36,527 nt of DNA, from the NCBI GenBank assembly GCA_003693705.1, contig RBZT01000216.1, positions 1 through 36,527 of the forward strand, in the 5' to 3' direction. Positions 1,644 to 36,392 of this stretch are shown in pieces; position 1 is the stretch's first letter, and each line of letters opens with the position of its first letter. Made by a program: the position numbers and the translations under genes. The notes below the pieces were generated by a model. That model was not told the DNA's origin and ran no database searches. It worked only from the letters and a program-made list of their open reading frames with translations. The stretch is from Polymyxa betae. Lineage: Eukaryota; Endomyxa; Phytomyxea; Plasmodiophorida; Plasmodiophoridae.

Positions 1644-2694
1644 GAGCAAGTACAGCGGTGTGTGCTAAATTCCGTGAGCTAAAACATCAATAGGCACCAA
1701 ATAACGTATGAAAAGGTGCGGGAGACTCGAAGCTGTTGGAAATGCACCGGTGACCTCTGTAAGGGTTGCAACTCCTGGTAACTGGGACCAGCCAGACATT
1801 CATCACAAGGAAGGGCGGGCGAACCTGAGTTGCGAGGGTGAACAAGGGAGACCGGGCTGACACTGTGGAGGGTGGCAAGAACACTGGAAGGTGGAAAGTC
1901 CGCCGCGGAGTTTTGACACTATATGGAAGTCCCCTAGTATGCATTATCCTATATAATTCTCATTTCATAATAATACAATTCATTCTGTTATTGGTTGTCT
2001 AACCTCAGGATCAATATTCGTAGTTCATGTCAGAAGAACAGAAGCTCCCAGCAGTGCTTGCAGGTCCATACTGTCTGCTATTCCTGATTTTGTAAAATGT
2101 CAGTTCCCCAGCAGCAGATGCTGGCGCTCTTTGCTCAGTATGCAATGGCGTTGGCCCAGGAATGTGAGGCGGAGCTTCCTCAGCTTCATCAAGCTCTGAC
2201 GACAGCGATGAAGACCTCTTCATCAATATTCGACCTTGGAAAAAACACATCCCAAATCTAAATAGGCACGAGTTTTGTTTTCAAAACTTTTACTGGATGA
2301 TTATTGGGGAACCCAAACAATTATTCAGCAAAGCAGTTCAGCACCCATTTTTCGGATATCTCTGGAGCTTTTATATATAATACGAAAATTAGCGTTACGA
2401 AACGAATACCTTCCTCTGAAATGGGACTGCTCGGGACTTCCAATATTTACAGCAAAGCAAAGATTGCAGCAAGGGCCTAGACAAAGGAGAGAGATAGACA
2501 GGGAGAATGAAATGGAGATGAATGGATGTTTATTCCGTGCGGTATTCGATGCGCCAAATTTGGCGCACGAGAAAGCGCAGGAACAAAATAGCGTATTGAA
2601 TGCCTCACGACTGGAAAACCGAGAAAAAGCGCAGCGCTATTGCGCGGCCTTTTTAGCTCATAAACTGCGTTATCACACACCGCTGTACTTGCTC
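1644..2694. mobile_element. 1,051-bp MITE-like element with 25-bp TIRs and TAA target duplication
   Basis: The ends are inverted repeats starting GAGCAAGTACAGCGGTGTGT (1644-1668 and the complement of 2670-2694; 24 of 25 bases match). Both ends are flanked by TAA (1641-1643 and 2695-2697). A 3-bp TWA duplication is the signature of PIF/Harbinger-type insertion, and Harbinger transposases occur at 3.5 and 12.6 kb, so a trans-mobilised Tourist-like element is the natural reading. The interior has no recognisable transposase. It contains a short Cys-rich stretch SCWKCTGDLCKGC (plus, near 1730), a Ser/Asp-rich stretch with SSSSDDSDEDLF near 2190-2230, and a perfect 18-bp palindrome at 2550-2567. 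Neither peptide is assigned. Confidence 0.88.
2550..2567. repeat. perfect 18-bp palindrome inside the MITE
   Basis: TGCGCCAAATTTGGCGCA is its own reverse complement. It lies 127 bp inside the right end of the MITE and could be a subterminal binding site or cruciform. No function can be assigned. Confidence 0.8.
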
Positions 2695-12633: not shown

Positions 12634-13060
12634 GTGCGGAGATCAATGGACGTTCCAACACCTCTCTATATCCCGAATGTCAGGTTTGATCTGTCCACTA
12701 TTAAGGATCAAAATGCTCTGCATGATTTCCGCTTCACAGCTCATCAAACTGCGCAGATTAGCATCCATTTACAATTACCAGCGGTTATCATAACTTCGGA
12801 GAGAGATCGAATTCTTGCTCCAGAAAGGTTAGCTTTGGTGTCATAATCCAGCGGACAGCCTCTCGCTGGCGCAACCAATAATGCAGCTCCAGCCAATAAC
12901 TGACTGTACCTACCTACCATCGATAATACAACTAGACGTTGCAGCTGCCGAACTGGGGATAGCCCAGTTCGATTAACGCATGTTCTGGACCTAAATCTTG
13001 TTTGTTCTCGATTCGGTTCTAACTCCCCTCCTTCGGTAGTCTTTCGTTTAATGTTCCTCT
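12634..13060 (+). pseudogene. second PIF/Harbinger transposase remnant (N-terminal part)
   Basis: The plus frame gives VRFDLSTIKDQNALHDFRFT, then HLQLPAVIITSERDRI and ERLALV. After an in-frame stop it continues as SSGQPLAGATNN and LYLPTIDNTT. This resembles the N-terminal region of Harbinger transposases (FRF…L..L..P.vi.t.er…..e.aL..lL.rls.P.r….fg.s.s.lS.i.n). No catalytic block is present, so it is a 5' fragment. The AT-rich island begins about 100-150 bp downstream. Confidence is moderate because only weak motifs support it. Confidence 0.55.
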
Positions 13061-13245
13061 TCGTCCTGCCTCCATCTCCCACGATTGCGCTGTCCAAGTC
13101 TCACATATTCTCCATTATCTTATACTTGTGTATTTGTTTACATTCTTGGTTCATAACAGTGTAGCCTGTCAAGACAGTAGAATGGCTAATCGTTAGTAAA
13201 TCGTGGGCGTTTTGGGAACAATAAAAATGATTAATGCAAAAACAG

Positions 13246-13400
13246 ATTAATAACCCTAACCCCAAAACCCTAATCCCAAAACGATATTTTCAAAACCAAT
13301 TTCAACAATATCACTCCCATACCATTCCTGCCCATCCCAAAAAAAATACAACACCCATCCCAAAAAACCAATTCCCAAAAACCCTAATCCCAAAAACCAA
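13246..13400 (+). repeat. telomere-like C-rich repeats
   Basis: Irregular CCCTAA-type strings: AACCCTAACCCC, ACCCTAATCCC twice, with CCCATCCCAAAAAA spacers. They lie at the left edge of the AT-rich island with the C-rich strand on plus, the sense expected at a left chromosome or plasmid end. Too irregular to be a working telomere. Confidence 0.55.
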
Positions 13401-13485
13401 AACAAAAAATATCACCAACAATCAACCCCGCCCGCCCCAATATATATTCTTATTATCATTTACAATATTGTCCGCAAAATAATAA

Positions 13486-13776
13486 TTACAATTCAAAATA
13501 TGTTTTATCAAATCTATTCACTACATCACTGAATACATATATCGGACAACAATCATCATATAAGTCTTCGTAATCAAAACCATTTCCGTAATCTTCAAAA
13601 TACGAATTATCCACGATGATGAAATCAGACGTATTCGTGGATTTGTCTTTTATGAAATAAGCACGACAAAAGCCGTTTTCAATCAATTCGATTTTCTCAC
13701 TTTTCTTACTTCTGTCAAATGCTATTATGATGTCGTCAGTTTCAATTTTATCGGTTTCATTACCATCTTTTATAAA
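13486..13776 (-). pseudogene. island ORF A: acidic protein, no start codon
   Basis: Open from 13776 to 13486: ETDKIETDDIIIAFDRSKKS, then ENGFCRAYFIKDKSTNTSDF, YFEDYGNGFDYEDLYDDCCP and VVNRFDKTY. Acidic, Tyr/Asp-rich; I recognise no family. There is no in-frame ATG. ATGs lie just upstream in another frame (near 13797-13804), so a single-base indel near 13775 may have split the 5' end. The recurrent motif TTGCGGAAAATRTTGAAAAT (minus sense) sits both upstream (13803-13823) and downstream (13456-13479). Product and function unknown. Confidence 0.5.
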
Positions 13777-13824
13777 TAAACATTACAATACACTCTCATT
13801 TTCATTTTCAACATTTTCCGCAAT

Positions 13825-14046
13825 TCATTCACTACCCATAAAATCTTCAAATGGGATTTCTAAATGTTTCAAAACAAATTTTGCTATGCATAATCTACAA
13901 CAATATTTAACATCACGTTTTATATGAAAACTTAATAAATAGTCATCATCATACCCAGCGCAATCAATACAATAAATTTTCTTACAAATAGAGCAGATAA
14001 AGTCGTGTTCGTTTTCAAAAGTCTCATCACATCCAGAACAATCCAT
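13825..14046 (-). CDS. island ORF B: small RING/PHD-like zinc-finger protein
   Basis: 73 residues from a real ATG at 14044-14046 to TGA. Cysteine pairs are regularly placed: DCSGCDETF, FICSICKKIYCIDCAGY, then KYCCRLCIAKF, with a His between (SFHIKRD). This could bind two zincs in a RING/PHD/FYVE-like cross-brace, a fold common in small proteins of large DNA viruses and in eukaryotic regulators. No catalytic or membrane segment. The motif GCGGAAAATATTGAAAAT (minus sense) lies about 25 nt upstream of the ATG and about 22 nt downstream of ORF C, so it could be the promoter of B or the 3' signal of C. Confidence 0.72.
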   Translation of the reverse strand: MDCSGCDETFENEHDFICSICKKIYCIDCAGYDDDYLLSFHIKRDVKYCCRLCIAKFVLKHLEIPFEDFMGSE

Positions 14047-14119
14047 TTTAATAATTACTATAAACCCCTATTTACATTTTCAATATTTTCCGCAAAACGA
14101 TTTCCATAATGTAAGTAGT

Positions 14120-14326
14120 TTATTCATCGTCTTTCTTGGGGTGATTTCCGCAGGTTCGGCGATTACAATTGGGTTCTTTGCAATTCTTACAATGTTTTAT
14201 ATGTTTCTTTTGTTCTTTAACTTTCTTGTTTGGATTGAGAGGACACTGTTGAATGTTATGCCCGGTCTCACCACATAACGAGCACTTATACCCATTGGGA
14301 AATCGCAGTCCTTTTTTGTGCACCAT
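14120..14326 (-). CDS. island ORF C: zinc-knuckle protein
   Basis: I prefer ATG at 14324-14326 (MVHKKGLRFPNGY); an upstream ATG at 14377 adds 17 hydrophobic residues of unclear value. The product carries KCSLCGETGHNIQQCPLN, a CX2CX4HX4C knuckle, and a second Cys-rich unit HCKNCKEPNCNRRTCGNH, separated by a Lys-rich linker. Such knuckles bind single-stranded nucleic acid, or occur in zinc-knuckle Myb and transposase proteins (GHN-x-x-C). It ends in acidic KKDDE. Function is unknown beyond likely nucleic-acid binding; no retroelement frame surrounds it, unlike the Gag knuckles elsewhere in this window. Confidence 0.72.
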   Translation of the reverse strand: MVHKKGLRFPNGYKCSLCGETGHNIQQCPLNPNKKVKEQKKHIKHCKNCKEPNCNRRTCGNHPKKDDE

Positions 14327-14422
14327 CTTGACTATGAATAACATATACACGCGCGCTCTACTAATATCTAAAATCATATCTCACAAACAAAAAATTTATT
14401 GAAAACAAAGGAAATTTTCGTC

Positions 14423-14983
14423 TTATTCGGTCGGGTCAAAATCGTTTTCATTGTCATCGTCCTTTTTCTCATCATCATTGTTATTGCCCTTATCACGTTT
14501 AGGTGTTCGTGGCGGAGGTTTCGGAAAAACTATATTCCATAAAGTCTCAACAAGTTCCTGATATTCCTCTTCTTGCTTATCGGGACAAAAATATTTGACT
14601 TTGGATAATATTGCTTCACGTTTAGATGTTAAGGGTGTATCATCCTTACTACGATTAAACCTTGACCTTTCCTTCGTTGCTTGTTCTGGTGTAAGGTTTT
14701 TGTTCTGTATGAATTTCATAAATTTTAATTCTTCTTGAAGTGTTTTGATGAAATCCTTGATCTTCTGTATGTTGGTATTCTTATCATCCTTCCCATTCAC
14801 TTTTAAATTCTTGGGATGAGAGTGCCCGTAAAATAATGCGACAATAGCACGTTGACCCTGTTTAACAACGTTAAAGTTGATGTCTTCAATCCAATTTTGT
14901 AAGTCATCAATTTGTAATTGTAGAGTATCAATCAGTTCATCCACATCAGTCTTTTCAACGGTCTTCTTGTCATCTTCACTCAT
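14423..14983 (-). CDS. island ORF D: coiled-coil protein with acidic tail
   Basis: 186 residues from ATG at 14981-14983. N-terminal MSEDDKKTVEKTDVDELIDT leads into heptad-like helices (LIDTLQLQIDDLQNWIEDI; IQKIKDFIKTLQEELKFMKF), then TPEQATKERSRFNRSKDD, a segment with YFCPDKQEEEYQELVETLW and a Pro-rich patch KPPPRTPKR. It ends in a very acidic, Asn/Asp-rich tail. No Cys pairs or membrane helix. It resembles no family I know. It faces ORF E across a 188-bp divergent promoter region with repeated TCAGTCAA sites, so the two may be co-regulated. It is the longest and best-formed ORF of the island. Confidence 0.75.
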   Translation of the reverse strand: MSEDDKKTVEKTDVDELIDTLQLQIDDLQNWIEDINFNVVKQGQRAIVALFYGHSHPKNLKVNGKDDKNTNIQKIKDFIKTLQEELKFMKFIQNKNLTPEQATKERSRFNRSKDDTPLTSKREAILSKVKYFCPDKQEEEYQELVETLWNIVFPKPPPRTPKRDKGNNNDDEKKDDDNENDFDPTE

Positions 14984-15171
14984 CGCGTCGAATTCGTTTT
15001 GACCGCTAATCAGTCAAACAATCAGTCAAGACCCTACGTTGACTGAATGATGTCTAACGCAAAAATACCCACTGATATGACTGACAGCACAAAATTCGGT
15101 CGTTCTTGAACTACTTTTTGAAGTAGTCGTTTAGTCATTTATTCAAATACGGACGACATCAACTATTCAAG
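14984..15171. promoter_or_regulatory. divergent promoter region with iterated TCAGTCAA sites
   Basis: Between the starts of ORF D (minus) and ORF E (plus). ATCAGTCAA occurs twice in tandem (about 15008-15027), followed by the inverse TTGACTGAA near 15039, TGACTGACAG near 15079 and TAGTCATTT near 15132. Two direct copies plus an inverted one is typical of an operator bound by a dimer. An im/perfect arm pair (CTACTTTTTGAAGTAG, about 15111-15126) lies near the ORF E side. Confidence 0.5.
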
Positions 15172-15375
15172 ATGGACGACCTCAATAACACAATTCAGTT
15201 GCTTCGTGAAGAGGGAAGATATGGATATTTGGAGGATATCGTTATTACTATCATCTGTATACTCTACGAAGATGACAAACTTCAAGAAATAGACACAATA
15301 TACAGCACGGCAAAAGACTATCTTAAACGTGTTGGTTTCGTTTCAACTCAAGAAGAACCGACACAAACACCCTAA
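15172..15375 (+). CDS. island ORF E: small acidic helical protein
   Basis: 67 residues from ATG at 15172 to TAA. Sequence blocks MDDLNNTIQLLREEGRYGYL, EDIVITIICILYEDDKLQEI and YSTAKDYLKRVGF suggest a compact all-helical protein with a hydrophobic second helix; the tail is Thr/Gln/Pro-rich. No family recognised. It is the only plus-strand gene of the island and shares the divergent promoter with ORF D. CAAACCCTAAT, a telo-box-like string, lies just downstream near 15410. Confidence 0.62.
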   Translation: MDDLNNTIQLLREEGRYGYLEDIVITIICILYEDDKLQEIDTIYSTAKDYLKRVGFVSTQEEPTQTP

Positions 15376-15442
15376 TCATCATTCAATACAAATTCATTTT
15401 TGTTTCCACTCAAACCCTAATACCCTTATGATAGTAATACAT

Positions 15443-15904
15443 TCACATCTTTATCAAAATCTTAAATAAACACGCTTTAATTTTCATCAAATCCTTTATC
15501 ATTTCGGCAAGTTCCTTCTTGATATCAATATCATCGTCATCTTTATCCTCCTCTTTCGGTGTAATAGGTTCTGATGATTGAACCGAGACGACAGGGATAC
15601 ACGGGATCAGCACCATAGGAACAGCGTTTGAGCGGTCAGCTGGTGCCGATGATGTTCCCTCTAACATGTTCATAGATGCCAATTTGCGGACAACTCGGTT
15701 AAGGTCATCTCGTTGGAAGTTTTGAGTTGGGACAATAGTAGTTTCAGTGTGTTCGTCAGAAGACTGGGAAATTTGTCGCTGAACTGGACGACGAACTGCT
15801 TTACCTCCTCCGTGATAATGGCATTTGGAACCTCTAACCTTAACCTTATTACGGCAAGGGGCTCCATTACTTTTTTTGGTCGCTCCACAACGAGTAGTTG
15901 GCAT
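15443..15904 (-). CDS. island ORF F: Cys/His N-terminal domain of the phage/virus 'C-x-H-GG' type
   Basis: ATG at 15902-15904 gives MPTTRCGATKKSNGAPCRNK followed by SKCHYHGGG. The spacing C-GATKK…G.PC…C-x2-H-G-G matches a small zinc motif I know from many phage and some algal-virus proteins (CGA.TK.G.pC….C..HGG). The rest is low-complexity: RRPVQRQISQSSDEH, NRVVRKLASMNML, an IPCIPVVSVQSSEPITPKEE segment, acidic EDKDDDDIDI and a C-terminal helix ELAEMIKDLMKIKACLFKIL. It may bind DNA through the N-terminal motif. TTGAAAAC just upstream of the ATG resembles part of the recurrent island motif. Confidence 0.7.
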   Translation of the reverse strand: MPTTRCGATKKSNGAPCRNKVKVRGSKCHYHGGGKAVRRPVQRQISQSSDEHTETTIVPTQNFQRDDLNRVVRKLASMNMLEGTSSAPADRSNAVPMVLIPCIPVVSVQSSEPITPKEEDKDDDDIDIKKELAEMIKDLMKIKACLFKILIKM

Positions 15905-16865
15905 CGTTTTCAAGATTTTGATGAATGAAATGATGACACGCGAACATTACATTAGGGTTTGTATTGACACACACATAACGAGGTGATGGCACACACTTGA
16001 CACACACTTGACAAAACGTAATCACCATCGCCGTCCAAGGTAATCGTCTCATTTCGCTATTCTAATCCTACTCGATACTCCCAATCAGTAGTGATACAAT
16101 CTTATCTATATCATCTCTGCTATTTTAGCACTGATACAAATATTATCTTAACAGATATATTATCTTAACAGATTACAAGATACAAGGCAAGCAAAGGGGT
16201 GGGGGTTAATCAAGGATTAGGTAAATTTCTATTTAATGTATGTTCTGTTTTCAATTCGGCGAATTTCGCTGATAATCGTTTTTAGGTAATCCCAATAAAG
16301 ATACTACTCACATCTAACCCCCCCCCCCCCCACGCCAATGCTACTGCCAGCGAAAGAACTCCCCCGAATTCTCTCATCGCTTCGGCGATTATCGCTTCGT
16401 GCGATTGTCTTTATTTTCTACGGAACCTCTGCTGGGGTTGTTTGTTTTTCCAATAGTGCGGAGGCACTTTAATCACTCGTGCGCGGGCACTATAATCACC
16501 GGTTCCTCATCATTTTCTATGATATCTAAAAAATAAGCAATAATGGCATATCCGCCGTTTTGTTTTTCCCCAGCATTTCCCACTTCAAAAAAAATAATAA
16601 ATAATTGAACGCCTTAAAACCTTATGAATGTGTAATATAAAGTAGCAAAAGGGTAGGTGTTTGAATACCAATATTGACCCTCTTTATGGACGGAGACTGT
16701 TATGGCAATCTGAGACGTCTTACATATAGCGCCTTTAACCAAGAACAATACCTATTATTAACATTTCAATAGACTGCGCGCAACTTTTGTTTCAACTTTG
16801 GGAAATCCCAACGTCGTTTCCGATTTGTGCAACCCAATCCATATTAAAGTTCCATCCAAAAAACC
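15905..16865. other. gene-poor right part and edge of the island
   Basis: Direct repeats: ACACACTTGAC twice in tandem (15991-16012) and two copies of TATTATCTTAACAGAT (16141-16156 and 16158-16173). G-rich telomere-like strings are at about 16195-16225 and a run of 14 C at 16318-16331. A Cys-rich minus-strand ORF (15867-16052) overlaps the ORF F start and is probably spurious. From 16332 to 16865 composition is more mixed and I see no gene. Confidence 0.5.
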
Positions 16866-16945
16866 CACAGTCTCCAAGCGGATTTGAACCCACGACCTCA
16901 TCGATACAGCGCAAGCACTATATCAACTCAACCACAGTCTGGTGT
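16866..16945 (-). repeat. tRNA-derived (SINE-like) remnant with A and B boxes
   Basis: On the minus strand TGGTTGAGTTG (16924-16934) fits the pol III A box (TRGYNNARNNG). GGTTCAAATCC (16880-16890) fits the B box, with a tRNA-like separation. The acceptor and T stems do not pair, so it is not a working tRNA; a SINE head or tRNA pseudogene fits best. The plus-strand ORF across it (GFEPTTSS) is the usual artefact of a reversed T-arm. Confidence 0.55.
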
Positions 16946-17244
16946 ACACGTCATGTGGGCGCAGGGTAACTTGGCTCGAGTCGTGCATGGCCACGAACCA
17001 CAGGACTTCTCAAGCTCCGAACCGGAGTTGCTATAGCACACAGAGACCCAGTCGACTATGGCAGCTCCCCACTGGTGTAAGACAACTCCGCCACGGAGAT
17101 TCCATATATATGAATCTGCGTTAATCTTATTTTACTATATAACAGCCATCCGGGCCATCAATACAATCACTTCTTAAACTGACTGCTTGTCCAGACATTG
17201 ATCGCTGTTGCCTCTCTAGTCTCAACATAGCCGAACTAGAAAAA

Positions 17245-28440: not shown

Positions 28441-28654
28441 CAGCAGCTGTACCAGTACAGCATCTGGCCGCCCCAGCTGCATCAGCACAAAAAAACAGCA
28501 GTATAGATTGCCATCCGCTCCAGCAGGTTCAGCAACTTCAGCACCACGAGCAACAGCTCGGGCACGTTCAGCTCAAACAGCAACGACCCGTGCAAAGGGA
28601 GCAGAGCAACGACCATTGAAAGCAATAAAACGTTGGAAGAAATTAAAAGCATGA
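28441..28654 (+). CDS. possible Ala/Arg- or Gln-rich low-complexity reading frame
   Basis: From about 28510 to TGA at 28652 one plus frame reads PSAPAGSATSAPRATARARS, then RAKGAEQRPLKAIKRWKKLK, basic and Ala-rich like a linker-histone tail. An overlapping frame reads a Gln/His-rich repeat (QQVQQLQHHEQQL). There is no clear ATG. GCA/CAG-type repeats can create such frames by chance, so a real gene is uncertain. It directly precedes the tandem satellite. Confidence 0.25.
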
Positions 28655-30428
28655 ATAAACTAAGAAGGGAGAAAATTTGATAAATGGTCAGCATCCACAC
28701 TTGTGAAAAATCTTGCAAGATTACCATCGATTCGATAACTACATCGCTATGAAAACGCGAGTCGCCCAGCGTTAGCACGAGAACAATCAGCTAGCACAGG
28801 GTATAAGATCTATAGAATATATAAATAAACGAATTGAAATGATATAAGGGCCCAGAACGCCCTGCCCTGCAAGCGAAAAGGAGAAACCGTGAGTCCCATC
28901 AGCGACCGAAAAATAGAAAGATAAGAGCATTCGTAAAAACAGCCAACTATTCTAACAATTGCAGAGCACCTTAAAAAGCATCAATACACTGAGAAGTGAG
29001 AAAATTTCAAATGGGCAGCATCCATTCTAACCGAATATAATTTCCAAGTTTACCTTCAATTCGACCCCAATATCGTTTTCAAAACACGAACCGCCATGAT
29101 CTATGCGCGAGAGCAATCAGTGCAGTGTATACAAACAATAGAATAAACTAGCAGAAATGTTAGAAGTGTCAAGAAGGCCCTGCAGGTGAAAATGAGATCT
29201 CGTGCTTCCCATCAGCGAGGAGAGCCAAAAATATAGAAAGGAAAACGCATTCATATAAGCAATTAACAATTCTTAAACATACAGAAAATCTTCAAAAGCA
29301 TAAATAAATTGAAAGACAGAAATTTCTAAAAAGGGCACCATCCACCCTAGCCGACAAAATAGAATTAGAATACCTTCGATTCAATGTTATTTCAGCCCCG
29401 AACACTCGATCCGCCCCAATCTACACACGAGAAAGATCAGCGAAGGGTATACAAACAATATTGCAAACAAAAAACTATGTTAGATGGGCACAGAAGGCCC
29501 TGCAAGCAGAAAGGAGAAACATAGGCGTCCCATCAGCGGCGAGACCGAAAAAATCGAAAGAAACAATCATTGCTAAAAGCAACCAGCTATGTGAAATCAT
29601 AGGCATCCAATCAGAGATTCATATGAGCAGCCAACTGTTTTAATAAATGCAGAAAAACTTTAAAAGCATTAATGAACTGAGAACAGATAAAATTCAAAAA
29701 TGGGCAGCACCAGCCTCGCAGATAAAAATTTACAGATTACATTCGTTTCGGCACCATTATCCCCAAAAAAGCTCAAGCCACCCCGATCCATACACGCAAA
29801 TAGTCAGTACATTGTATACAAACTGCAGAGAAAATAATCAGTCGTGCTATACTGCCCCAAAAAGCACTTCAAGGAAAACGGATTTACAATCATATGAGTC
29901 CCATCAGCTGCGAGACCGAAAAACATGTACAGAAAAAGCATTCATAAAAGCAGCCAACTGTTTGAATAAACTCAGAAAACTTATAAAAACATTAATAAAC
30001 TGAGAAAAGATAAAACTTCGAAAATGGGCAGCATCCACCTAGCCGAAAAAAAATATACAGGTTACCTTCGTTTCGACGCCATTATCGCCACGAAAGCTCG
30101 GGCCACCCAGATCTGTACACGAAAACAATCAGCACAGGGTATATAAAATTACAGATCAAACAAACAGTCGTGCCATACTGGCCCAGAAAGCCCTTCAAGC
30201 GAAAAGATGGAATCATCTGCCTCCCATCAGAGACAAGACCGAAGAAAATGTACAGAAAACTCATTCATAAAAGCAGCCAACTGTTTGTATAAATTCAGAA
30301 AACTTATAAAAACATTAATAAACTGAGAAAAGATAAAACTTCGAAAATGGTCAGCATCCACCCTAGCCGAAAGAAATTATACAGATTACCTTCGATTCGA
30401 CGCCATTATCGCCACGAAAGCTCGGGCC
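28636..30428. repeat. tandem satellite, about 320-370-bp unit, 5-6 copies
   Basis: The anchor string GGCAGCATCCAC (or near variants) recurs at 28686, 29013, 29333, 29702, 30026 and 30349 (spacings 327, 320, 369, 324, 323). Shared blocks per unit include AAAGCATTAATAAACTGAGA, AATCAGCACAGGGTATA, AAGGCCCTGCAAGCGAAAA and TCCCATCAGC. The last two units are nearly identical over their AGCAGCCAACTGTTTG…TCGAAAATGG part, whereas the first three are clearly diverged. No long reading frame is shared between units. Confidence 0.85.
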
Positions 30429-31275
30429 ATTAAGAACTGTACCATGACTGATGGCGACAATCGATCTGGTGAGGAACATGTCCTCTTCCGAAGTCCATGA
30501 TTTTGCCTTTCCCATGCTATTGCAAAATTCGGAGAATAAAAAATGCGGAATTTTATAAGATTTGTTTGGAAAATCGAAGAACTTTCTGCATAGATTTCTA
30601 TTAGCTTTGAGAGCTATCGTGAGCAGAATAGCTCCGAATGACGCAAAATCAAATTTGATATTGTTTTTGGCTCGGCGGTGGGGCTTGTTTTAAAGCTAAA
30701 TTTTGCATTACCTCTCCGTTTAAGCTCCGAGGTGGAGACGCTCTTGGATTGCTAATTTAGCCCTCATTGCTGTTGCTGCCTCCAAACGACATCTGCCTCT
30801 CGTTGTTCTGGTTGCTGATTCTGGAGACCCTAGCTGTTGAAGTCGCTCCTTCCAACACAGCTGTCAAACAGGCACAAGCATGAATTGATACTGTACTGAC
30901 TTTTCATCAGCTAGATGCAGGCCCGACTGCTGCAGTTGCTGATGAAAGACCGGCTCGGGCAGCCTGTGTTGTTGGCCTTACCTAAATTAATGGATTCGCC
31001 ACTACCTAAACTCCTTCGCTAATTACTGCAAAGGCTGTTACTGAATCGGCTTCTATTTGCACCGGTTGATGCTCTAAGGCACTTGTTAAATTGGCAGTTT
31101 CCGATTTAGGTGTTGTTAGGGCTCCTGCATAGATTCTCGACTATATCGCTGCAGCCGAAAAGTATCCCGTCGATCTCGAAGGAATTCTGTTTTGTATTTG
31201 TAATCTCACATCAATTTAATTTGTCAATAAACATCGCTTAAGGCTCGTTTTGTTGCTGTCATCCCTTACATGTTA
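30429..31275. other. unassigned region with a decayed plus-strand reading frame
   Basis: Around 30830-31190 plus-strand pieces read like protein between stops: VEVAPSNTAVKQAQA, TVLTFHQLDAGPTAAVADER, TAKAVTESASICTG and ALVKLAVSDLGVVRAPA. Ala/Val-rich, no family recognised. The left 400 bp shows nothing. Confidence 0.3.
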
Positions 31276-32608: not shown

Positions 32609-34635
32609 ATGCAGTCCAGCAAAGATGCATCGTCCTCTCTGCCCGATGTTGGGATCGAGTAAAAGGTCCCCTTTTATCGGTTAGCTAAGCGGTGCGATGA
32701 CTCGGGAGCGAAGGGTAGGACGCGAGGGACCGGTGTCCTGCAACGGAGCGACGTCAAGGAGTCCTCAGATGCGGAGCGCCGGGGCACGGAATGGAACGGA
32801 GAGATGATCGGAGTGGAGCGGTGAGGGGATCGTAGTGGAGCGTAGGAAGGAAGGAGCGGTGCCGGTGAGACGGAGACGGAGCGGAGACGTTGGTCGGAGG
32901 GAAGACGGAGGTGAGGCGAGGCGAGAGAACGAAGCAATAGAGAGTCGGAGACGAGATGAAAAACGTATGAATTTTGGAGTTGATCGGTATGGTTGCGCGG
33001 AGGCCGCTCCTCGCCATTCATAGATGGGAGACGAGGGGACCCGCGCATTCCGTGACAGGGCTCTTCCCCTATAGGAGTCGTCAGCAGGGGCGCATCCCTC
33101 TGCGCAGCCCCTCAGGGAGGGCCTGTACGATTGCCTGGTGGTCGGCTGGGCGGCTGCGCGTACTGTCATGCTCAATGAGCATGACACCCGATCTTTCTTT
33201 GAACGTGCAGATGCACGAAGCAATTTACAGACGCATGCTCATAGCATCCTCATTAGGCCTAGTAGCACGTCAAATGCGTATTCTGCTCGCCATGAAGAAT
33301 CAAGAAATGGTGTATCGATAAAGGCTTCATGGCTGGTGTCACTGTTACCGGTGATAAGCTCCATCTCTTCTTGCACGAACAGGTTGTCGGAAGAGAATCA
33401 AAGAAGAAAAAGCGTAATGGAGAAGCTGCAACTCGGACCGTCGGGAAATCAACTGCTCTGGGCTACACCGCTGCCTTTGTTGAAGTTTGGCGACAGCAAA
33501 CAGCTAATGAATACCCATCTAAATCCCCGGGACTGCAACGTCAAACGACTCTTGACACATGCCGAACACGAAACGCAACAGCATCATAAGGCGAATTTTG
33601 TTGATCTGAGGCATCGGAACTCTTCTTGATGGATACACCACCACCCATCAGATGGTCAAGATTGCTGACGCCTTCTGGAGAAGAGAAAGGGATTTCGGCC
33701 AAAGTTTGAGGAACTGTGTGGCTTCTTCATTTCTCATTACGCTTTGCTACGAGGGCAGACGGTCCGGAATCTGGATTAGCCGAAATACACTCTGTGCTTT
33801 TGGAGAATGAAGGCTTCTCAACCTGTTATGCACTCGTTTTCGTTGTCCGGGTAGGGAAGACGAACCAATTCGGCCGCAATGAGCTCGGTGCTTGTAGTCG
33901 CACAAAAGACTTTCGAATCTGTCCTTTCGGAGCGTGCGCTCTGTATTTATTCTGGCGGTAACACTTCGAAAAGTATTGGTTTCCAGACCTTACAACAAGT
34001 GAAGACTGGTTTGACATAAAGCCCTTCAAAAGCGGACAAAATTCAACTACAGCCATTGACGATGGAACCCATAAAGCATCGATCGATATGTCGTTTAAAG
34101 AGGACGGATTGTCTACTAAATCGAAGACCCACGCTGATAGAGGCTCTGGAGCGAGCGAGAATGGCTGAATTGGCGGATGCCACAGAAAACCAGATACGTC
34201 GTCTCGGCCGTTGGAATAATCAATCAATGGAAAACTGTTATTTGACGAATCTACCGAGAGAAGCAATTAGTATCCGCCTAATTCTGGAAGTTCCTTTCTT
34301 CAGCGAGCCGCTATTGATCCTCCGTTGTCTCTCAAACGAATGATCTTTCCTGAGGTTGAAGTCAACCTCGAGAGAATAAATTCAGGCCAAATCAGGATAC
34401 GATCGCAGCCAGAGGCTTTCTGGAACTACTAGACCGACTCAAAACTGTTATATTACAAGACTCGGAATTACTTAAACAGCGGTATCCTTCACATCCTTTG
34501 TGGGGACATGCTCTGTTTTCTTCCGAGCTGTACCTTCAGTTTATACAAGACCTTCAACGAGCCCTAGATGTCAGCACTGACCCGACCGAACACATCTTGC
34601 AAACAGCTAGGGTTGATTTGTCGACTAAACGATGA
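32609..34635 (+). pseudogene. Crypton-type tyrosine recombinase, split by a solo LTR
   Basis: ATG at 32609 (MQSSKDASSSLPDL) is interrupted at 32647 by the LTR. Past it the frame continues as LNVQMHEAIYRRMLIASSLG, then after a shift MAGVTVTGDKLHLFLHEQVV, KSTALGYTAAFVEVWRQQTA, and in other frames LTHAEHETQQHHKANFVD, TTTHQMVKIADAFWRRERDF and VASSFLITLCYEGRRSGI (first catalytic Arg region). Next come KDFRICPFGACALYLFWR, then THADRGSGA with the H-x-x-R pair (34130-34141) and MAELADATENQIRRLGRWNN followed by MENCYLTNLPR with the nucleophilic Tyr. The C-terminal part GFLELLDRLKTVILQDSELL ends at 34635. All elements of a Crypton recombinase, which integrates circular DNA by Tyr chemistry, are visible; about six frame changes make it dead. 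Similar proteins are known from fungi and oomycetes. Confidence 0.85.
32647..33186 (-). mobile_element. solo LTR (540 bp) with CCCGA target duplication
   Basis: Begins TGTTGGGATCGAG and ends CATGACA (TG…CA), flanked by CCCGA at 32642-32646 and 33187-33191. It aligns along its whole length with the LTR at 35846-36392 at high identity, with a few indels. No internal region is present, so LTR-LTR recombination has removed it. The plus strand is strongly purine-rich, with iterated GGAGCG-type strings. Judged by the polypurine tract of the second copy, element sense is minus. Reading frames seen across it are chance products of composition. Confidence 0.95.
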
Positions 34636-35845: not shown

Positions 35846-36392
35846 TGTTAGGATCGAGTAAAAAGTCCCTTTTATTGGTTAGATAAGCGGTGCGATGACT
35901 CGGGAGCAGAGGGTAGGACGCGGGGGACCGGTGTTCTGCAACGGAGCGACGTCAGGGAGTCCTCGGAGGCGGAGCGGCGGGGCACGGAGTGGAGCGGAGA
36001 GAGGGTCGGAGTGGAGCGGTGAGGGGATCGTAGTGGAGCGTAGGAAGGACGTACGGAGCGGTGCCGGTGAGACGGAGGCGGAGCGGAGACGAAGGTCGGA
36101 GGGGAGTCGGAGGTGAGTCGAGGCGAGAGAACGAAGCAATAGAGAGTCGGAGACGAGATGAGAAACGTATGAATTTTGGAGTTGATCGGAATGGTTGCGT
36201 GGAGGCCGCTCCTCGCCATTCATAGTAGGGAGACGAGGGGACCCGCGCAGTCCGTGACAGTTAGGGCTCTTCCCCTATAGGAATCGTCAGCAGGGGCGCA
36301 GCCCTCTGCGCAGCCCCTCAGGAAGGGCCAGTACGACTGCCTGGTGGTCGGCTGGGCGGCTGCGAGTACTGTCATGCTCAATGGGCATGACA
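35846..36392 (-). mobile_element. 3' LTR of a Ty3/gypsy (chromovirus-like) element
   Basis: TGTTAGGATCGAG…CATGACA, 547 bp, a close relative of the solo LTR at 32647-33186. A polypurine tract (minus sense AAGAGGGGGGCGA) abuts its right edge, and Pol C-terminal sequence follows, so this is the 3' LTR of a minus-strand element whose body lies to the right, outside the window. Its insertion cuts hAT copy 2 after CCACAG. The target duplication partner is outside the window. Confidence 0.92.

What the first reader, a model, noticed from the sequence alone, without database searches (positions are those of the whole stretch)
13200..16331. AT-rich island of six small intronless genes: candidate integrated virus or linear plasmid
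A sharp composition change, tight head-to-tail packing, absence of introns and of transposon motifs, a phage/virus-type C..HGG zinc motif, two other zinc-binding proteins, shared intergenic motifs and a divergent promoter set this apart from everything around it. No hallmark replication or capsid gene is present, so it is either a fragment or a small unknown replicon. This is the best candidate here for an undescribed system.
Basis: partly seen in the sequence, partly recalled or inferred. Interest (0 to 1): 0.85.

Follow-up and report, generated by a model that had tools for sequence, protein, structure and literature searches.

The report
Remnant of hairpin-ended DNA parasite
This AT-rich stretch holds worn remains of a repeated DNA element; better preserved relatives in the same genome end in palindromes that would fold into hairpins, and the element likely spread as a small parasite of a larger DNA virus that has not been found.

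Summary
The island is real but composite, and its right edge is not at 16,331. Its AT-rich part (A, B; about 13.24-14.1 kb) carries a promoter-like motif whose five best genome matches lie here and in two other AT-rich loci, against none for the reversed motif. A-like or B-like genes recur at C98, C239 and C541. C239, C541 and C359 share a terminal repeat of about 550-600 bp (C235 and C227 a diverged one) whose outer part is palindromic and occurs in both inner orientations. The one complete copy, C359 (2,918 bp), has it inverted at both ends, a 6-bp flanking repeat and an intact tRNA-His gene. The right part (E, F) is a second repeated module, seen on four other contigs, without the motif. 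No relatives of B, D or F were found among 5.8 billion proteins. I read the island as a decayed copy of small, likely helper-dependent, hairpin-ended mobile DNA beside or fused with a second module. The helper, the free form, the mover and the host's name are not shown; searches for hallmark genes were uninformative.

The parts
12839..13172 (+). LTR-like repeat bounding the island on the left (not part of it); end likely at 13158
   Evidence: Four other places in the genome (C196, C282, C199, C235); the C282 copy is flanked by ATCGA on both sides
13234..13450 (.). CCCTAA/CCCAAAA-rich left end of the AT-rich module
   Evidence: Matches C421 (0 of 300 shuffles score as well) and 48 bp of C432; similarity to the C227/C235/C359 ends is not significant (9 of 300 shuffles)
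13457..13477 (-). promoter-like motif, third copy, just after the end of A
   Evidence: the same order (A-like end, then motif) is seen at C98
13486..13776 (-). ORF A, open frame without an in-frame ATG, likely broken
   Evidence: A-like end at C98, 45% over 33 aa, E 3.7e-5
13803..13823 (-). promoter-like motif before A
   Evidence: 0 mismatches
13825..14046 (-). ORF B, 73 aa, cysteine-rich, likely zinc-binding
   Evidence: B-like 85-aa proteins beside the terminal repeat in C239 and C541, BLASTP 2e-5 for window-C239
14075..14095 (-). promoter-like motif before B
   Evidence: 0 mismatches
14120..14377 (-). ORF C, 85 aa, CCHC zinc knuckle plus a second Cys/His cluster
   Evidence: PF13696 E 6.8e-9; only itself found in its own genome
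14423..14983 (-). ORF D, 186 aa, predicted helical, orphan
   Evidence: 43-residue match to phrog_7158 (unknown function) E 5.5e-4; model pLDDT 55
14986..16390 (.). repeated E-F module with its flanks
   Evidence: C200 76%, C539 70%, F at C309, pieces at C480
15172..15375 (+). ORF E, 67 aa
   Evidence: intact ORFs also at C200 and C539; dN below dS in all three pairs
15443..15913 (-). ORF F, C..C..C..HGG protein (153 aa from the ATG ending at 15904)
   Evidence: window-C200 dN 0.13, dS 0.52
16928..17098 (+). dispersed 171-bp repeat bounding the island on the right (not part of it)
   Evidence: 14 other places

Best explanation
The AT-rich left half of the island is most likely a decayed copy of a small mobile DNA element that likely lived as a hairpin-ended satellite of a larger DNA virus and inserted into host chromosomes, while the right half is a second repeated module joined to it or lying beside it. 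Shown: relatives of A, of B and of their motif lie in other AT-rich loci of this assembly; C359, C239 and C541 share a terminal repeat of about 550-600 bp, and C235 and C227 a diverged one; the complete copy C359 is 2,918 bp, has the repeat inverted at both ends, starts AGT and ends ACT, is flanked by AGTTGT on both sides and carries a tRNA-His gene. The outer part of the repeat is a palindrome (about 170 nt in C359 and C541) whose inner piece is inverted in C541 relative to C359. Inferred: the free form was a short linear DNA closed or primed by terminal hairpins, and hairpin turnover during copying gave the two inner orientations; its few genes would be switched on through the shared AT-rich box by a helper's transcription machinery; replication would be by the helper, since no replication gene was recognised in it; an integrase or transposase acting in trans would insert it. 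The window copy has since lost recognisable terminal palindromes and the start of A.
For: Motif: 5 genome matches at up to 2 mismatches, reversed control 0; 9 against 2 at up to 3 mismatches, one of the extra ones at C235 beside the terminal repeat. A-like end plus motif at C98. B-like proteins beside the terminal repeat at C239 and C541. Terminal repeats on 17 contigs, 9 of them read. Arms of C359 95-99% complementary; 6-bp flanking repeat; ends start AGT in 8 of 9 read. Palindromes; inner piece of C541 scores 139 inverted against 80.5 forward, of C359 (left end) 138 forward against 75.5 inverted. tRNA-His: ARAGORN, Rfam 66.9 bits. C98, C259 and C235 share a hairpin unit; C259 and C235 also bear the terminal repeat. 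E and F changed mainly at synonymous sites.
Against: No helper virus, capsid, polymerase or integrase gene was found (the searches were uninformative). The window copy shows no terminal inverted repeat of its own, and its left end is not significantly like the C227/C235/C359 ends (9 of 300 shuffles). C, D, E and F lack the motif. In C539 the E-F module lies outside the end of an AT-rich element. The target duplication rests on one copy, in a GTTG-rich flank. Flip/flop rests on one clear inverted end (C541) against three forward (C359 twice, C196); C239 is mixed, C3 and C227 uninformative. The common early box AAAATTGA is in 1 of 18 upstream regions. The B match is short and cysteine-rich.
Confidence: 0.45

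Rival explanations
1. A foldback or MITE-like DNA transposon family with long palindromic terminal repeats that captured AT-rich DNA; no virus and no free hairpin form. Inversions of the inner palindrome arise by recombination between its arms.
For: Long terminal repeats, 6-bp flanking repeat, palindrome-only copies at C196 and C3. No viral gene recognised. A complete DDE_1 transposase ORF lies next to the AT-rich piece in C98.
Against: Different copies carry different small genes behind a shared box rather than one captured insert; an intact tRNA gene and 17-32% GC cargo; no transposase inside the one complete copy.
Confidence: 0.28
2. Scattered fragments of a large AT-rich DNA virus (giant virus type) that inserted in the past; the terminal repeats are that virus's own ends or repeats.
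For: Dense small genes, shared promoter-like box, tRNA gene, hairpin-type ends; flip/flop ends are described for Asfarviridae, Poxviridae and Phycodnaviridae (passage in PMC11788076).
Against: The complete copy is only 2.9 kb between two terminal repeats. Families PF04451 and PF04947 were not found, though the control was silent. No IMG/VR relative of the five queries tried.
Confidence: 0.15
3. A fast-evolving host gene cluster in an AT-rich region.
For: Intact ORFs; E and F changed mostly at synonymous sites.
Against: Copies at many loci, several decayed (F has stops at C200 and C309), and AT-rich relatives bounded by terminal repeats.
Confidence: 0.05
4. Misassembly or contaminant.
For: No read data; several AT-rich relatives sit at contig ends.
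Against: Related material on at least ten other contigs (C98, C200, C235, C239, C309, C359, C421, C480, C539, C541), embedded in repeats common in this assembly.
Confidence: 0.05

Closest known systems
Transpovirons of Mimiviridae, and the pacmanvirus transpoviron and 2-kb episome
   Same: Short AT-rich linear DNA with terminal inverted repeats (380-520 nt in Mimiviridae), few small genes, zinc-finger proteins, gene control signals like the helper's (PMC7031253 passages; PMC11788076 abstract, sections 18 and 26, passages).
   Different: About 7 kb with a helicase and found in virus particles; here the complete copy is 2.9 kb, without a recognised helicase, and known only inserted in chromosomes.
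Endogenous mavirus-like elements (virophages) in Cafeteria
   Same: Inserted elements with terminal inverted repeats, lower GC than the host, target duplications (mostly 3-5 bp; 5-6 bp for mavirus) and promoter motifs matched to giant viruses (PMC8547959 passages).
   Different: Most have capsid, ATPase and protease genes; none recognised here. Truncated ones are 5-15 kb; here 2.9 kb. No palindromic ends in the passages I saw.
Polintons/Mavericks
   Same: Long terminal inverted repeats, 6-bp target duplication, ends starting 5'-AG (the last recalled, not from a call).
   Different: 15-20 kb with PolB, integrase and capsid genes (recalled); none found here.
Hairpin termini of poxviruses and asfarviruses
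   Same: AT-rich ends, inverted and complementary forms called flip and flop (PMC8956199 abstract passage; PMC11788076 passage).
   Different: Here seen only as palindromes fixed in chromosomes; no gene of such viruses found.

Membership tests
Transpoviron | Terminal inverted repeats of a few hundred nt | tested here: met
   C359, about 550 bp each; not found in the window copy
Transpoviron | About 7 kb in length | tested here: not met
   C359 is 2,918 bp
Transpoviron | Helicase gene | tested here: not met
   No Pfam helicase in the 8 window ORFs or 9 relatives' ORFs scanned; ORFs not scanned could differ
Transpoviron | Zinc-finger protein | tested here: met
   C above cut-off; B-like proteins only weak
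Transpoviron | Episome carried in giant-virus particles | not testable with these tools
   needs cells and virus
Virophage / EMALE | Major capsid, ATPase, protease genes | tested here: not met
   none recognised by Pfam in the 17 ORFs scanned
Polinton | 6-bp target duplication, AG... ends, long TIR | tested here: met
   one complete copy; AGT in 8 of 9 ends
Polinton | Protein-primed DNA polymerase B | tested here: inconclusive
   PF03175 not found in the genome, control silent
Hairpin-ended replicon | Terminal palindromes in two inner orientations | tested here: met
   C541 inverted relative to C359 and C196; C239 mixed; C3, C227 uninformative
Hairpin-ended replicon | Free linear DNA with closed or self-priming ends | not testable with these tools
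   needs DNA from cells
Nucleocytoviricota fragment | Major capsid or VLTF3 gene in the genome | tested here: inconclusive
   PF04451, PF04947 not found, controls silent
Linear cytoplasmic plasmid of yeast type | Own DNA and RNA polymerase genes (recalled) | tested here: not met
   none in the ORFs scanned; the genome-wide PolB search was uninformative

The most novel reading that the evidence does not exclude
An undescribed class of about 3-kb hairpin-ended satellite replicons that insert into eukaryotic chromosomes, carrying changing sets of tiny genes behind a shared promoter box and sometimes a tRNA gene: a chromosomal reservoir of transpoviron-like parasites of a still unknown virus of this host.
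Probability: 0.3. Interest if true: 0.85.

Novelty: new variant of a known kind. Interest (0 to 1): 0.6.

Why it matters
If the satellite reading holds, such elements would be a host's record of viruses not yet seen and a link between the episomes of giant viruses and chromosomal transposons. Ends kept in both orientations in chromosomes would make their way of copying testable. They carry no hallmark gene, so scans for viruses by gene content would miss them.

Tried and rejected
Searches outside this genome covered three of the six proteins in the protein database (F, D, and an alignment of B relatives: nothing at E 0.01); A, C and E were not searched there. IMG/VR: no relative of F, D, the C359 112-aa protein, the C235 103-aa protein or the B alignment, and no exact match of the motif. 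PDB: nothing for D; F only at E 0.61 and 0.68. AlphaFold2 without an alignment: D pLDDT 55, F 57, too poor for fold searches, so none was run.

Rejected: that the window's left end is a C227/C235/C359-type end (9 of 300 shuffles score as well); that C539 holds a homologue of D (E 0.34); that C98, C235 and C539 hold a tRNA gene (a tRNA-like stretch is shared, but neither ARAGORN, nor Rfam, calls one). D's match to phrog_7158 (E 5.5e-4 over 43 residues) is to a family of unknown function and may only reflect helical composition. The bacterial promoter/terminator scan does not apply here. The two regular expressions were written after seeing the sequences. Of 17 contigs with terminal-repeat matches 9 were read; of 9 motif places at 3 mismatches, C199, C336 and C483 were not read. 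The titles listed by paper searches named no inserted 3-kb hairpin-ended element; these listings are capped, and preprints and most subscription papers are not held.
Full report
Setting. The window is contig C385 of an unnamed assembly of 24.4 Mb in 541 contigs, with no relatives held. Three of nine ORFs scanned from the window and C98 have transposon-type domains (DDE_1 twice, RVT_1 once and below its cut-off), and dispersed repeats lie on both sides. I take the host to be a eukaryote; I could not name it.

Observation. GC is 29-37% from 13.0 to 15.5 kb, 44% at 15.5-16.0 kb and 42% at 16.0-16.5 kb. B, C, D, E and F have ATG starts; A does not. Six ATG ORFs of 66 aa or more (one antisense) compare with a mean of 0.79 in 400 shuffles; none reached six or 186 aa. 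C has PF13696 above its cut-off. F's PHROG match is weak, E 0.017.

Edges. On the left an LTR-like repeat ends at 13,158-13,172. On the right the island runs past 16,331, since C480 matches 16,206-16,390. A 171-bp repeat with 14 other places starts at 16,928.

Module E-F. From 14,986 to at least 16,390 the sequence recurs at C200 (76%) and C539 (70%); F recurs at C309 (38%, six stops) and in pieces at C480. E is an intact ORF in three loci. dN and dS are 0.33 and 0.77 (window-C200), 0.28 and 1.45 (window-C539), 0.37 and 1.68 (C200-C539) for E, and 0.13 and 0.52 for F (window-C200, two stops skipped). Both were likely under selection before some copies decayed. The module has no motif.

Module A-B. 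The motif TTGCGGAAAATRTTGWAAATG has five matches at up to two mismatches in the genome: three here, one at C359, one at C98; the reversed control has none. At up to three mismatches it is nine against two. In 20 upstream regions GGAAAATATT fits better than in shuffles (p 0.05 or less) in nine. In 18 regions a regular expression for the box hits 7, one for a second block (GGTTnATTGTA type) hits 6, together 10; C, D, E and F are not among them. AAAATTGA is in 1 of 18.

Relatives. C98 has an A-like end (45% over 33 aa, E 3.7e-5) followed by a motif, as in the window. C239 and C541 have B-like 85-aa proteins beside the terminal repeat (BLASTP 2e-5 for window-C239). The repeat is shared by C359, C239 and C541 (84-92% over about 600 bp) and, more diverged, by C235 and C227 (83-87% over about 200 bp). 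C98 and C259 share the hairpin GGGCACTGCGAATAGGTGCCCG and C235 has it with one base changed.

The complete copy. C359 (L053 4415-7332) is 2,918 bp, begins AGTTGAAAACC, ends GGTTTTGTACT and has AGTTGT on both sides. Its arms are 95-99% complementary. The outer ~170 nt of each arm folds on itself at about -103 kcal/mol with RNA parameters. Eight of nine ends read begin AGT. The inner piece of the palindrome is inverted in C541 relative to both ends of C359 and to C196; C239 is mixed, C3 and C227 uninformative. Between the arms lie small ORFs (99, 59, 73 and 35 aa on one strand, 112 aa on the other, by my choice) and a tRNA-His gene at 17-32% GC.

Reading. Dispersed copies, and one with a flanking repeat, show movement into chromosomes. 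Palindromic ends in two orientations, a shared box and the lack of a recognised replication gene suggest, but do not show, a small replicon copied by a helper. The closest described things are transpovirons (PMC7031253, passages), the pacmanvirus transpoviron and 2-kb episome (PMC11788076, abstract, two sections, passages) and EMALEs (PMC8547959, passages). It misses their defining genes, so it is not filed as a member; it may work like them.

Open. Whether the two modules are one element: in C539 the E-F module lies outside the end of an AT-rich element (L016 about 8,493), which speaks for neighbours; in the window they abut with no palindrome between, which speaks for one. C and D found only themselves in their own genome. 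The window's left end matches C421 and C432 only. Searches for capsid, VLTF3 and PolB families were uninformative because the controls were silent.

Noticed in passing
window 28644-30442: Array of diverged repeats; a 323-bp unit repeats 2.5 times at 29617-30429.
   Followed up: no
window 32647-33186 and 35846-36392: Direct repeat of about 550 bp, 92% identical, GC-rich, with 22-bp tandem units inside.
   Followed up: no
window 1734-2037; L016 7864-8167: 304 bp, 95% identical, shared with the C539 locus between its E-F module and the AT-rich element; pieces also in C196.
   Followed up: partly
L021 280-442 and L064 1233-1353: Palindrome-only copies with a variant outer sequence, MITE-like, at C196 and C3.
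   Followed up: partly
L020 4004-5053: Complete DDE_1 transposase ORF (349 aa, E 1.5e-50) directly beside the AT-rich piece of C98.
   Followed up: no
L063 1-330: AT-rich, low-complexity start of contig C432; 48 bp match the window's left end.
   Followed up: no
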